64,000 nt of DNA. It comes from Klebsiella africana (GTDB lineage: Bacteria; Pseudomonadota; Gammaproteobacteria; Enterobacterales; Enterobacteriaceae). The DNA lies in NCBI RefSeq assembly GCF_020526085.1, contig NZ_CP084874.1:3162001-3226000 (forward strand), read 5' to 3'. This document shows, in pieces, positions 26,789 to 28,507 of this stretch (within the stretch, counting starts at the first letter, position 1; the number at the start of each line of letters is the position of its first letter). The position numbers and the translations under genes are program-made. The notes beneath the pieces are model-generated. The model was not told the origin of the DNA, did no database searches, and saw only the letters and a program-made list of their open reading frames with translations.

Positions 26789-28507
26789 TTATTGCTGTGC
26801 TTCTTGATAAATTCGGTCAACAATGGTGCTAATAATATCTTCCGGTCCGGTTAACCCTCCTTTTCCGACACAAATTAAGCCGGCATAATCGCCACCAATA
26901 ATCCGCACCATATCGGTTTGCGGGATGACATAGTCAATCATTTCTATTCCGGTGGCACCCAGCTCTTTTAGTACATTGACCATAGTATCGCCACCGGTCA
27001 TATACAATCCTTTAATTTCACCCGACGCACAGTTAAGCACCTCGCGCACAATACAGCCCAGCCCCTGGTTAATATTTTGCGCAGCCTCGCCGTGGGCCAG
27101 ACCAAATCGCTGCTCCTCTTCCTGAAGGTTTAGCAACCGCCCGGTCAAGGCAGACTCAAAAACAAAGAGCGCGTTGTGCTGCGCCGGAACGCACTGCCGG
27201 GCATGCTGCACCACGCGATTGACTTCAATCTCAGCGGCGTTTTTCCGGTCAACCAACAGCTCGGCATCCACCGGGATATGGCAGACCCGGGCATCATTGG
27301 CGATCAAATACTGGAGCTGTTTTTTGGTCACTGGCGTTGCGCTGCCGGCGACGATCAGAATCGAGCCGCGCTGGCTGTCCGCTGTCAGGCTCGCGGGCGC
27401 ACTGCTCCGCGCTTCGCGCATCAGGCCGCGACGAACCGCCAGCCGTTCGGTAAAGGGCCCTGGATCGACGGCCAGCACGTTCCAGTTCAGGGCCACTACC
27501 GCCCCGGCGATGGCATCGACATCGTCGACGGTTATCGCATCGACCACTATCACCCGCACGCCGCGCTGTTGTTGTTCCTGTAAATCCTGCTGGATTTGCC
27601 CTTCGCCTTTCATCACCGACGTCAGCGCGATATGCCCGACCTGATGATGGGTCTGCGCTGCCAACAGTCCCGGCACCCACGACTCGGTGACCGGAGTACG
27701 TACATCGCGAGCCACATCGGTCCGCGACAGGGCTACCGAATCAATCACCGAGTAACCGCCGACGAGAATACGCCGTGACTGCGGCATCGCCGGCACCACA
27801 ACCGCCACCGTCTCCTGCGGCAGTTGTTCCAGCATGGCGTCGATTTCAAATCCGATGCCGCCGCGCAGCGTGGTATCAATCCGCTTGGTGAAATAGTGCG
27901 CGCCGCGAGCCTGCAGCTGTTTCACCGCAGCGCTCACTTTCTGCTGGGCCTCCGCTTTCGGCAATGGGCGGCTGTCGCTGCTGACCACCATCGCCGGATA
28001 CTCTACCTCATTGCGGGCGAAGGATTCGGTATCGAAAAACGCGGCGGTTTTTAAACCGCTGCGCGCCAGCAGCACCCCGACGGTGGTTGCCCCGGTCAGA
28101 TCGTCCGCCACGATCCCAAGCTTTCCGCCTTCCCCTTGCGGCCAGACCATCTCAATGCAGGCTGGCGTCACCCCGGAGACGTAGATCCCTTCGTGTATAA
28201 ATTCCGCCAGCGGGCCGCTTTTACCGGTGGGATGCAGGTTAATGGTGGGAATTCCCCGCTTCGGATAGAGTCCGCAGCGCAACGTGCCGCCGCAGTCGAT
28301 GACCATTAAACCAATCTCTTCCGCCGGCGGTTCGCCATTTTTGAATACATCAATGGAGGGCCAGCCGGTCAGTTCGCTCAGGCGGTCGACGACCGGGGGG
28401 CGGATACCCCCGGTGATGTACGCGATCTTTTTCCCCTGACCCAGCGTGATAGTCAGCGGCCCACCCCAGCCCTTACAGCCCTTGCTAATCAACAGATGTT
28501 TTTCCAT
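26789..28507 (-). CDS. Fusion: PTS glucitol-type IIB domain + DUF1537 acid-sugar kinase
   Basis: 572 residues. Residues 1-120 are a near-complete SrlE-type IIB domain: KGWGGPLTITLG, then VIDCGGTLRCGLYPKRGIPT with Cys72 and Cys78, and TGKSGPLAEFI. From residue 129 a DUF1537 kinase begins with GIVADDLTGATTVGVLLARS. It ends with GLYMTGGDTMVNVLKELGAT and GGLTGPEDI, the nucleotide-binding domain. Known DUF1537 kinases phosphorylate D-threonate, D-erythronate or 3-oxotetronates at O4 and are about 420 residues without a PTS part. The frame is unbroken and starts behind GAGGACAGAGAA. I infer that EI-HPr-IIA phosphorylates the IIB cysteine to modulate the kinase. Catalytic use of the phosphocysteine is a less likely alternative. 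Confidence 0.88.
   Translation of the reverse strand: MEKHLLISKGCKGWGGPLTITLGQGKKIAYITGGIRPPVVDRLSELTGWPSIDVFKNGEPPAEEIGLMVIDCGGTLRCGLYPKRGIPTINLHPTGKSGPLAEFIHEGIYVSGVTPACIEMVWPQGEGGKLGIVADDLTGATTVGVLLARSGLKTAAFFDTESFARNEVEYPAMVVSSDSRPLPKAEAQQKVSAAVKQLQARGAHYFTKRIDTTLRGGIGFEIDAMLEQLPQETVAVVVPAMPQSRRILVGGYSVIDSVALSRTDVARDVRTPVTESWVPGLLAAQTHHQVGHIALTSVMKGEGQIQQDLQEQQQRGVRVIVVDAITVDDVDAIAGAVVALNWNVLAVDPGPFTERLAVRRGLMREARSSAPASLTADSQRGSILIVAGSATPVTKKQLQYLIANDARVCHIPVDAELLVDRKNAAEIEVNRVVQHARQCVPAQHNALFVFESALTGRLLNLQEEEQRFGLAHGEAAQNINQGLGCIVREVLNCASGEIKGLYMTGGDTMVNVLKELGATGIEMIDYVIPQTDMVRIIGGDYAGLICVGKGGLTGPEDIISTIVDRIYQEAQQ

What the first reader, a model, noticed from the sequence alone, without database searches (positions are those of the whole stretch)
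26789..28507. PTS IIB domain fused to a DUF1537 acid-sugar kinase
One unbroken frame joins a glucitol-type IIB domain (residues 1-120, with both cysteines of DCGGTLRCG kept) to a complete DUF1537 kinase (from 129, ADDLTGA to GGLTGPEDI). Known DUF1537 kinases have no PTS part. A phosphocysteine on a metabolic kinase would let the PTS report sugar status directly to acid-sugar catabolism, a type of control I do not know to be described.
Basis: partly seen in the sequence, partly recalled or inferred. Interest (0 to 1): 0.88.

Follow-up and report, generated by a model that had tools for sequence, protein, structure and literature searches.

The report
Sugar-acid kinase with PTS switch domain
In Klebsiella and its relatives an enzyme that probably phosphorylates sugar acids carries, as part of the same protein, the phosphate-relay domain of a sorbitol transporter without the transporter itself, which looks like a built-in switch telling the enzyme whether better sugars are around.

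Summary
Window 26789-28507(-) encodes one 572-aa protein: a glucitol-type PTS IIB domain (EIIBC-GUT_N, residues 5-121, E 8e-47) joined to a complete DUF1537 kinase. It is old and constrained: both IIB cysteines are kept in 72 of 72 fusions compared, and IIB dN/dS is 0.039, no higher than in sorbitol-operon IIBs (0.070). A IIA gene (25301-25675) lies within 1.5 kb downstream in 12 of 12 fused genomes of a 392-genome family sample. Ten of 22 distinct fused genomes searched show no glucitol IIC, so there the IIA/IIB pair cannot serve sorbitol transport. G316, nested inside the fused clade (AU p 2e-8), has lost the IIB domain in frame and has no IIA, yet keeps an open kinase. Best reading: a transporter-free PTS branch (HPr to IIA His44 to IIB Cys72) controlling an acid-sugar kinase in cis. 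Phosphotransfer, its effect and the substrate are inferred. Against: the only IIA of Pantoea sp. A4 lacks the histidine, and G718 has a fusion without a IIA beside it. New variant of known PTS control of kinases.

The parts
26789..28507 (-). 572-aa fusion: PTS glucitol-type IIB domain + DUF1537 acid-sugar kinase
28145..28507 (-). IIB domain, residues 1-121 (Pfam EIIBC-GUT_N 5-121)
   Evidence: 57-69% identity to SrlE-type IIB in listed relatives
28292..28294 (-). codon of Cys72 (first Cys of DCGGTLRCG), proposed phosphocysteine
   Evidence: Cys in 72 of 72 fusions and 57 of 57 IIB-only proteins; that it is the phosphorylated one is inferred
28274..28276 (-). codon of Cys78, second conserved cysteine
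27443..28120 (-). SBD_N, substrate-binding half of the kinase, residues 130-355
26834..27358 (-). NBD_C, nucleotide-binding half of the kinase, residues 384-558
25301..25675 (-). PTS IIA, glucitol type (PTSIIA_gutA), proposed phosphoryl donor of the fused IIB
   Evidence: 110.8 bits, cut-off 25; within 1.5 kb in 12 of 12 fused family genomes
25544..25546 (-). codon of His44 of the IIA, proposed phosphohistidine
   Evidence: His in 20 of 21 operon IIAs and 18 of 18 SrlB-type IIAs; that it is the phosphorylated one is recalled for SrlB
25677..26696 (-). KdgT-family permease, the likely importer (not a PTS permease)
   Evidence: neighbour in fused and unfused relatives
28543..29553 (-). PdxA-like dehydrogenase, likely oxidative decarboxylation of the kinase product
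   Evidence: upstream of the kinase in fused and unfused relatives
24814..25272 (-). RpiB-type sugar-phosphate isomerase
23833..24786 (-). transaldolase (TalA type)
21809..23812 (-). transketolase
   Evidence: named by reading the ORF, no profile was run on it; synteny
29743..30588 (+). triose-phosphate isomerase homologue, divergent
30624..31586 (+). SorC/DeoR-type sugar-binding regulator
   Evidence: Sugar-bind 266.7 bits
29640..29655 (.). CRP-like palindrome in the divergent promoter region (1 mismatch)
   Evidence: site with at most 1 mismatch in 15 of 18 distinct fused loci scanned

Best explanation
The protein is an acid-sugar kinase with a built-in PTS receiver domain. Phosphate runs PEP - EI - HPr - operon IIA (His44) - fused IIB (Cys72) and stops there, because no IIC takes it on. 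The phosphorylation state of the IIB domain then sets the activity of the attached kinase, so that the acid sugar brought in by the KdgT-type permease is committed to catabolism (kinase, then PdxA-like decarboxylating dehydrogenase) only when PTS sugars are scarce. A CRP-like site in front of the operon would add the transcriptional layer. Shown: domain content, conserved phosphoacceptor residues, constraint, pairing of IIA with IIB, no glucitol IIC found in 10 of 22 carriers, secondary joint absence of IIB and IIA in one lineage. Inferred: the phosphotransfer itself, that it acts on the kinase in cis, and the direction (most likely phospho-IIB = active kinase). The substrate is unknown: a four-carbon acid (threonate/erythronate) by kinase kinship, though the rpiB-talA-tktB genes would also fit a five-carbon acid.
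For: Cys72 and Cys78 in 72 of 72 fusions. Median pairwise dN/dS: IIB 0.039, kinase 0.043, IIA 0.188; sorbitol-operon controls: IIB 0.070, IIA 0.208, so both parts evolve like working PTS domains. In 392 family genomes, 12 of 12 fused ones have the IIA within 1.5 kb, while 102 of 392 have any such IIA at E 1e-8. Fused IIBs form one clade apart from SrlE (100/100) and operon IIAs one clade apart from SrlB (99/95). PF03608 (IIC) is not found in 7 of 13 fused genomes and 5 of 12; three genomes are in both sets (two of them IIC-less), so 10 of 22 distinct; the 7 also lack PF07663. G316: IIB deleted in frame with the first residues kept, no IIA, IIB or IIC family match in its genome, kinase nested among fused ones (AU p 2.15e-8). 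Unfused relatives L013-L016 and L019 have pdxA-kinase-kdgT without IIA in the locus; the three of their genomes that were searched (G207, those of L013 and L016) have no PF03829.
Against: No biochemistry. The only IIA found in Pantoea sp. A4 (L009) has Ile at the His44 position although the IIB keeps both cysteines. G718 has a fusion without an IIA in the 14.5-kb locus; only an srl-type IIA on another contig could serve. The AlphaFold model has pTM 0.76 with a poorly predicted linker (123-126), so it shows no defined IIB-kinase contact. Unfused relatives and G316 show that the kinase part can exist without IIB. G316 is one lineage (one genome held in its genus; a 6-member cluster P0121) and lost rpiB as well, so its IIA loss could be incidental. 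The fusion is patchy: 2 of 6 genomes of the nearest genome's genus. The IIC-less count includes one metagenome-assembled genome (that of L011), whose completeness was not given.
Confidence: 0.62

Rival explanations
1. The IIA/IIB pair is a PTS signalling unit, but its target is not the kinase: unphosphorylated IIA (or IIB) acts on the neighbouring KdgT permease (inducer exclusion) or on the SorC-type regulator, and the fusion only keeps the relay at the pathway and at fixed stoichiometry.
For: The IIA gene directly follows kdgT in the operon. EIIA-type proteins are the usual regulators (recalled; e.g. KPN00353 on GlpK, PMC5770620 abstract). The linker is weakly predicted, with no sign of a rigid IIB-kinase interface.
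Against: It does not explain why IIB is fused to the kinase rather than to the permease or encoded alone; KdgT and kinase are both kept in G316 without IIA/IIB. The regulator gene was not seen beside the fusion in L008 and L009.
Confidence: 0.2
2. The IIB phosphocysteine is the phosphoryl donor: the enzyme is a PEP-driven acid-sugar kinase, as PTS-type dihydroxyacetone kinase is (DhaM feeding bound ADP; recalled), with IIA-IIB recharging ADP in the kinase half or phosphorylating the sugar acid.
For: Relay residues are present and no glucitol IIC acceptor is found in 10 of 22 distinct fused genomes.
Against: The nucleotide-binding half is complete and keeps motifs shared with unfused relatives; unfused relatives, and G316 after losing IIB, keep an open kinase. 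No DhaK/DhaL/DhaM domain in the protein.
Confidence: 0.07
3. The IIB domain is a passenger: a leftover of a gene-fusion accident with sorbitol PTS genes, without function.
For: One lineage dispensed with it (G316); one IIA has lost the histidine (L009).
Against: IIB dN/dS near 0.04, as low as the kinase's; 78 of 121 IIB positions at least 95% conserved against 149 of 444 in the kinase; both cysteines in 72 of 72; spread over several families.
Confidence: 0.05
4. The fused IIB is still a transport IIB that works with the cell's SrlA/SrlE IIC (moonlighting in sorbitol uptake).
For: IIB sequence is close to SrlE (57-69%); the nearest held genome G001 has srl-type IIA, IIB and IIC.
Against: IIC not found in 10 of 22 distinct fused genomes; SrlE carries its own IIB; the fused IIBs form a separate clade.
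Confidence: 0.03

Closest known systems
DUF1537 / four-carbon acid sugar kinases (SBD_N + NBD_C; D-threonate, D-erythronate, 3-oxo-tetronate kinases; Zhang et al. 2016, known to me from reference lists and recall, paper not held)
   Same: Both kinase domains above Pfam cut-offs; fold match to solved DUF1537 structures, target-normalised TM 0.73-0.83 for 1yzy, 3dqq and 5dmh (0.50-0.55 for 4xgj, 4xg0, 4xfr); pdxA-like neighbour.
   Different: Extra N-terminal IIB domain and a partner IIA; falls under the NCBIfam equivalog cut-offs of all three kinase models it hits (D-threonate kinase 200.5 of 450 bits).
Glucitol/sorbitol PTS (SrlA IIC, SrlE IIB plus membrane part, SrlB IIA)
   Same: IIB domain and IIA homologous, same conserved Cys and His.
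   Different: No IIC nor EIIBC-GUT_C half; IIB fused to a soluble kinase; separate clades for IIB and IIA; present in genomes where no IIC was found.
PTS control of glycerol kinase (EIIAGlc or P-HPr, recalled; KPN00353-GlpK in K. pneumoniae, PMC5770620 abstract)
   Same: PTS protein sets the activity of a non-PTS carbon-source kinase (proposed here).
   Different: There the PTS protein binds from outside; here a IIB domain is part of the kinase, with its own IIA.
PRD regulators with built-in IIA/IIB-like domains (MtlR of Bacillus subtilis; PMC3217849, passages seen)
   Same: A soluble, non-transport protein with a IIB-like domain whose phosphorylation state changes its activity.
   Different: MtlR is a transcription activator with a Gat-type IIB; here the effector is an enzyme and the IIB is of glucitol type.
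NCBIfam NF011497 (PRK14905): triosephosphate isomerase fused to a glucose/sucrose-type IIB
   Same: A metabolic enzyme carrying a IIB domain (model name seen; nothing else looked up).
   Different: Other enzyme, other IIB family; no function known to me.

Membership tests
DUF1537 acid-sugar kinases | SBD_N and NBD_C above Pfam gathering scores | tested here: met
   204.8 of 25 and 102.4 of 28.3 bits
DUF1537 acid-sugar kinases | Residues conserved across the family (D135, D136, K208, R209, D211, R215, G505-D507, K549-G551 and others) | tested here: met
   At least 95% conserved over 40 kinase rows, 25 fused and 15 unfused; their catalytic roles were not tested
DUF1537 acid-sugar kinases | ATP-dependent phosphorylation of an acid sugar | not testable with these tools
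   needs enzyme assay
D-threonate kinase (NCBIfam NF047819) | Curated score cut-off 450 bits | tested here: not met
   200.5 bits; so not filed as a D-threonate kinase
PTS glucitol IIB (EIIBC-GUT_N) | IIB domain above Pfam cut-off | tested here: met
   159.7 of 22.8 bits, profile positions 2-118 of 184
PTS glucitol IIB (EIIBC-GUT_N) | Conserved cysteine region DCGGTLRCG | tested here: met
   C72 and C78 in 72 of 72 fusions
SrlE, sorbitol permease subunit (NF049924, TIGR00825) | Full-length score cut-off (400 and 458.7 bits) with membrane half EIIBC-GUT_C | tested here: not met
   151.2 and 170 bits, residues 4-121 only; no PF07663 in the protein
Sugar-transporting PTS enzyme II complex | IIC membrane domain encoded with IIA and IIB | tested here: not met
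   None among the eight operon and flanking proteins scanned; no PF03608 in 10 of 22 distinct fused genomes
Glucitol-type IIA (PTSIIA_gutA) | Pfam PF03829 and the conserved histidine | tested here: met
   110.8 of 25 bits; His44 in 20 of 21 operon IIAs
SrlB equivalog/subfamily (TIGR00849, NF007696) | Curated score cut-offs 189.55 and 165 bits | tested here: not met
   118.9 and 125.1 bits
PRD-type PTS regulators | DNA/RNA-binding and PRD domains | tested here: not met
   No such Pfam domain in the protein
PTS-type dihydroxyacetone kinase | DhaK/DhaL/DhaM domains | tested here: not met
   No such Pfam domain in the protein
PTS-regulated kinase (works like) | Activity changes on PTS phosphorylation | not testable with these tools
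   needs phosphotransfer and kinetics

The most novel reading that the evidence does not exclude
A complete transporter-free branch of the PTS ends on a metabolic enzyme: HPr phosphorylates a dedicated IIA, which phosphorylates a cysteine in a IIB domain built into an acid-sugar kinase, and that phosphocysteine gates the kinase in cis. It would be the first described metabolic kinase controlled by its own PTS IIB domain (no such description seen in the listings; the main DUF1537 paper was not held).
Probability: 0.55. Interest if true: 0.8.

Novelty: new variant of a known kind. Interest (0 to 1): 0.66.

Why it matters
The PTS is known to control kinases by proteins that bind from outside. Here the receiver domain of the relay sits in the enzyme, with a private IIA and no transporter beside it, so the energy and sugar state of the cell would be read by the enzyme that commits an acid sugar to catabolism. 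That gives a two-protein system in which PTS control of an enzyme can be measured on one cysteine. The natural lineage that lost IIB and IIA supplies a built-in control. It also shows that glucitol-type IIA/IIB genes in a genome do not prove sorbitol uptake; some sources name these proteins 'PTS sugar transporter subunit IIBC' (P0037 and P0059), which is misleading.

Tried and rejected
Chance or mis-assembly as the cause of the fusion: rejected by 12 of 392 family genomes and by named isolates. Passenger domain: rejected as main reading by constraint. Fast evolution of the IIA (dN/dS 0.19) as a sign of decay: rejected, since sorbitol IIAs evolve as fast (0.21). Plasmid or E. coli origin: 1 of 72,556 plasmid records holds a full-length copy and 0 of 5426 E. 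coli genomes hold 80% of the gene. Fold search: 8 DUF1537 chains lead; no IIB chain among the 15 matches at E 0.001 or better; the model gives no readable domain interface. CRP-like sites are not enriched over the whole window at up to 2 mismatches (12 found, 18 expected); the case rests on position and recurrence. Rows dropped before counts: kinase trees left out L017 (frameshifts), L054/L061 (stop) and the loci L018, L050, L053, L060, L062-L064 as duplicates; distant DUF1537 rows were left out of the second tree, and 7 homologues were hand-picked into it. The CRP scan skipped loci without a divergent tpi, and five duplicate loci were dropped from its count (L018, L050, L061, L063, L064). Only 120 of 3362 and 120 of 1259 homologues were listed and used; some of the 72 fusions are truncated forms. 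dN/dS used 11 chosen pairs; medians are over the 9-11 per gene whose dS could be computed. In the control, of 153 pairs only the 37 with both dS between 0.1 and 2.0 were used. Papers: PMC4961189 not held; PMC4921024, PMC5445326, PMC10783003, PMC3217849 and PMC10381055 seen as passages only; PMC5770620 as abstract and section list; all others as search listings.

Full report
WHAT IS THERE. The frame 26789-28507 on the minus strand is open over 572 codons. Pfam finds EIIBC-GUT_N at 5-121, SBD_N at 130-355 and NBD_C at 384-558, all far above the curated cut-offs. The IIB part aligns to the solved glucitol/sorbitol-specific EIIB chain 9x2m at E 4e-46 over residues 4-121, and the kinase part to DUF1537 structures. 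The window is Klebsiella pneumoniae or a near relative: L001, K. pneumoniae ATCC 13883, is 99% identical in this protein, though the nearest held genome shares only 39% of the window's 31-letter words. The operon on the minus strand runs pdxA-like, fusion, kdgT-like permease, glucitol-type IIA, rpiB-like, transaldolase, transketolase; a triose-phosphate isomerase homologue and a SorC-type regulator are divergent. No IIC was found among these proteins (the transketolase was named by reading only).

THE FUSION IS OLD AND CONSTRAINED. Of the 120 listed homologues of the IIB region (of 3362 found), 63 are fusions and 57 are IIB-only proteins. With those of the second search, 72 fusions were compared, some of them truncated forms; all 72 keep C72 and C78. 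At least 95% conserved are 78 of 121 IIB positions but 149 of 444 kinase positions (63 fusions). Median pairwise dN/dS is 0.039 for IIB, 0.043 for the kinase, 0.041 for kdgT, 0.025 for pdxA and 0.188 for the IIA (11 chosen pairs, 9-11 usable per gene). Sorbitol-operon controls give 0.070 for IIB and 0.208 for IIA (37 pairs): the fused IIB and the operon IIA are held as tightly as parts of a working PTS. In trees the fused IIBs are one clade against SrlE (100/100) and the operon IIAs one clade against SrlB (99/95). Fusions occur in Klebsiella, Raoultella, Kosakonia, Mixta, Pantoea, Erwinia, Serratia, Intestinirhabdus and (frameshifted) Enterobacter loci, and by name in Dickeya, Pectobacterium, Zophobihabitans and Orbus. 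They are sparse and patchy: 12 of 392 family genomes, with 2 of 6 in the nearest genome's genus; 1 of 295 genomes in one sample of the order and 2 of 394 in another; 0 of 5426 E. coli genomes at 80% coverage.

IIA AND IIB GO TOGETHER. In the family sample, 13 of 392 genomes matched at E 1e-100 or better; 12 are fusions and one (G316) is the kinase alone. All 12 fusions have the IIA within 1.5 kb, while 102 of 392 genomes have any IIA match at E 1e-8 and G316 has none. Of 13 fused loci, 12 show the IIA after kdgT; the thirteenth (L010) ends inside kdgT, and its genome holds two IIAs. Relatives without IIB (L013-L016, L019; kinase 42-51% identical) have pdxA-kinase-kdgT but no IIA in the locus; three of these genomes were searched and have no PF03829 (G207; those of L013 and L016). 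So the two PTS parts were most simply added together to an existing acid-sugar operon.

NO TRANSPORTER NEEDED. PF03608 (glucitol IIC) is not found in 7 of the 13 fused genomes, which also lack PF07663, nor in 5 of the 12 fused genomes behind named loci. One of the ten is a metagenome-assembled genome (L011). In these the pair cannot move sorbitol.

A NATURAL DELETION. In G316 the kinase gene begins with codons like those of the fusion (MEKHSLMGKGSK against MEKHLLISKGCK), then lacks the rest of IIB and goes on as an open kinase, 475 codons in all. The IIA and rpiB that lie between kdgT and talA in relatives are gone too, and no PF03829, PF03612 or PF03608 is found in the genome. Its kinase lies inside the fused clade; holding the fusions together without it is rejected (26 rows against 9, AU p 2.15e-8). 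This is secondary loss of both PTS parts, which lie on either side of kinase and permease, with the kinase kept. It argues that IIB serves with IIA and is not needed for catalysis. It is one lineage (a 6-member cluster).

RESULTS AGAINST. The IIA of Pantoea sp. A4 (L009) has Ile where 20 of 21 operon IIAs and 18 of 18 SrlB-type IIAs have His44, and it is the only IIA found in that genome, while the fusion P0047, named for the same strain, keeps its cysteines. In G718 (Orbaceae-like by inference: 76% identity to the fusion of Orbus mooreae) the fusion lies with pdxA, kdgT, tpi and the regulator but without IIA; one IIA exists in the srl-type cluster on another contig. G397 has an in-frame stop in the kinase part and one near the end of the IIA. 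The AlphaFold model is good per domain (mean pLDDT 88.1) but pTM is 0.76 and the linker is poor, so no interface can be claimed.

HOW IT LIKELY WORKS. With no IIC to drain it, the IIB should be phosphorylated whenever HPr is, that is when PTS sugars are scarce, and lose the phosphate back through IIA to HPr when they are plentiful (established PTS behaviour, recalled). The simplest use is to let the kinase run in the first state. A CRP-like palindrome with at most one mismatch lies 69-89 bases from the tpi side of the pdxA/tpi intergenic region in 15 of 18 distinct fused loci scanned; of the two unfused loci scanned one has a 2-mismatch site elsewhere and one has none. Over the whole window such sites are not enriched. 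So the pathway seems to be under catabolite control at the promoter as well. The pathway itself: import by the KdgT-type permease, phosphorylation, decarboxylating oxidation by the PdxA-like enzyme, and entry through triose-phosphate isomerase or the pentose-phosphate enzymes (inferred). The substrate is open: the best equivalog, D-threonate kinase, is reached with 200.5 of 450 bits only, and the PdxA-like protein scores over the cut-off of PRK03743 and not of D-threonate 4-phosphate dehydrogenase.

WHAT IS KNOWN. PTS proteins regulate metabolic kinases from outside: in K. pneumoniae the EIIA homologue KPN00353 binds glycerol kinase and lowers glycerol-3-phosphate synthesis (PMC5770620, abstract seen). 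IIB-like domains sit in transcription activators such as MtlR (PMC3217849, passages seen). NCBI has a model for a triosephosphate isomerase fused to another type of IIB. No paper describing a IIB-DUF1537 fusion was seen in the listings; the main DUF1537 paper is not held. Hence: a new variant of a known kind, PTS control of a metabolic kinase, with the receiver domain built into the enzyme.

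Noticed in passing
P0001, P0131, P0122: Besides the main cluster P0002 (2610 members) there are near-identical shorter forms: 362 aa (157 members), 348 aa (153) and 453 aa starting at an inner Met (53); these look like broken or re-started alleles of the fusion in the window's species group.
   Followed up: no
L009 11826-12161: IIA of Pantoea sp. A4 lacks the otherwise conserved histidine and has a very long branch (1.46), as if on its way to loss.
   Followed up: partly
L061 (G397): One in-frame stop in the kinase part of the fusion and one near the end of the IIA; the operon may be decaying in this genome.
   Followed up: no
L017: Enterobacter sp. EA-1: most genes of the region are split by frameshifts, more likely sequencing error than biology.
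   Followed up: no
NZ_CP098173.1 178274-179992: A 275-kb K. pneumoniae plasmid carries a 97.5% identical copy of the fusion gene.
   Followed up: no
window 29743-30588 (protein 7): NCBIfam model PRK14905 describes a triosephosphate isomerase fused to a glucose/sucrose-type PTS IIB: a second, unrelated enzyme-IIB fusion (not in the window).
   Followed up: no
window 21809-25272 and 29743-31586: rpiB-talA-tktB plus a tpi homologue and SorC-type regulator around an acid-sugar kinase recall erythritol-type pathways feeding erythrose 4-phosphate (recalled); the substrate may be a five-carbon acid.
   Followed up: partly
PMC10381055: A K. pneumoniae bacteraemia Tn-seq table lists 'pdxA2 (pdxA)' VK055_2525 with value -2.398; whether this is the operon's pdxA-like gene was not checked.
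   Followed up: no
window 42325-42340: Perfect CRP-type palindrome.
   Followed up: no
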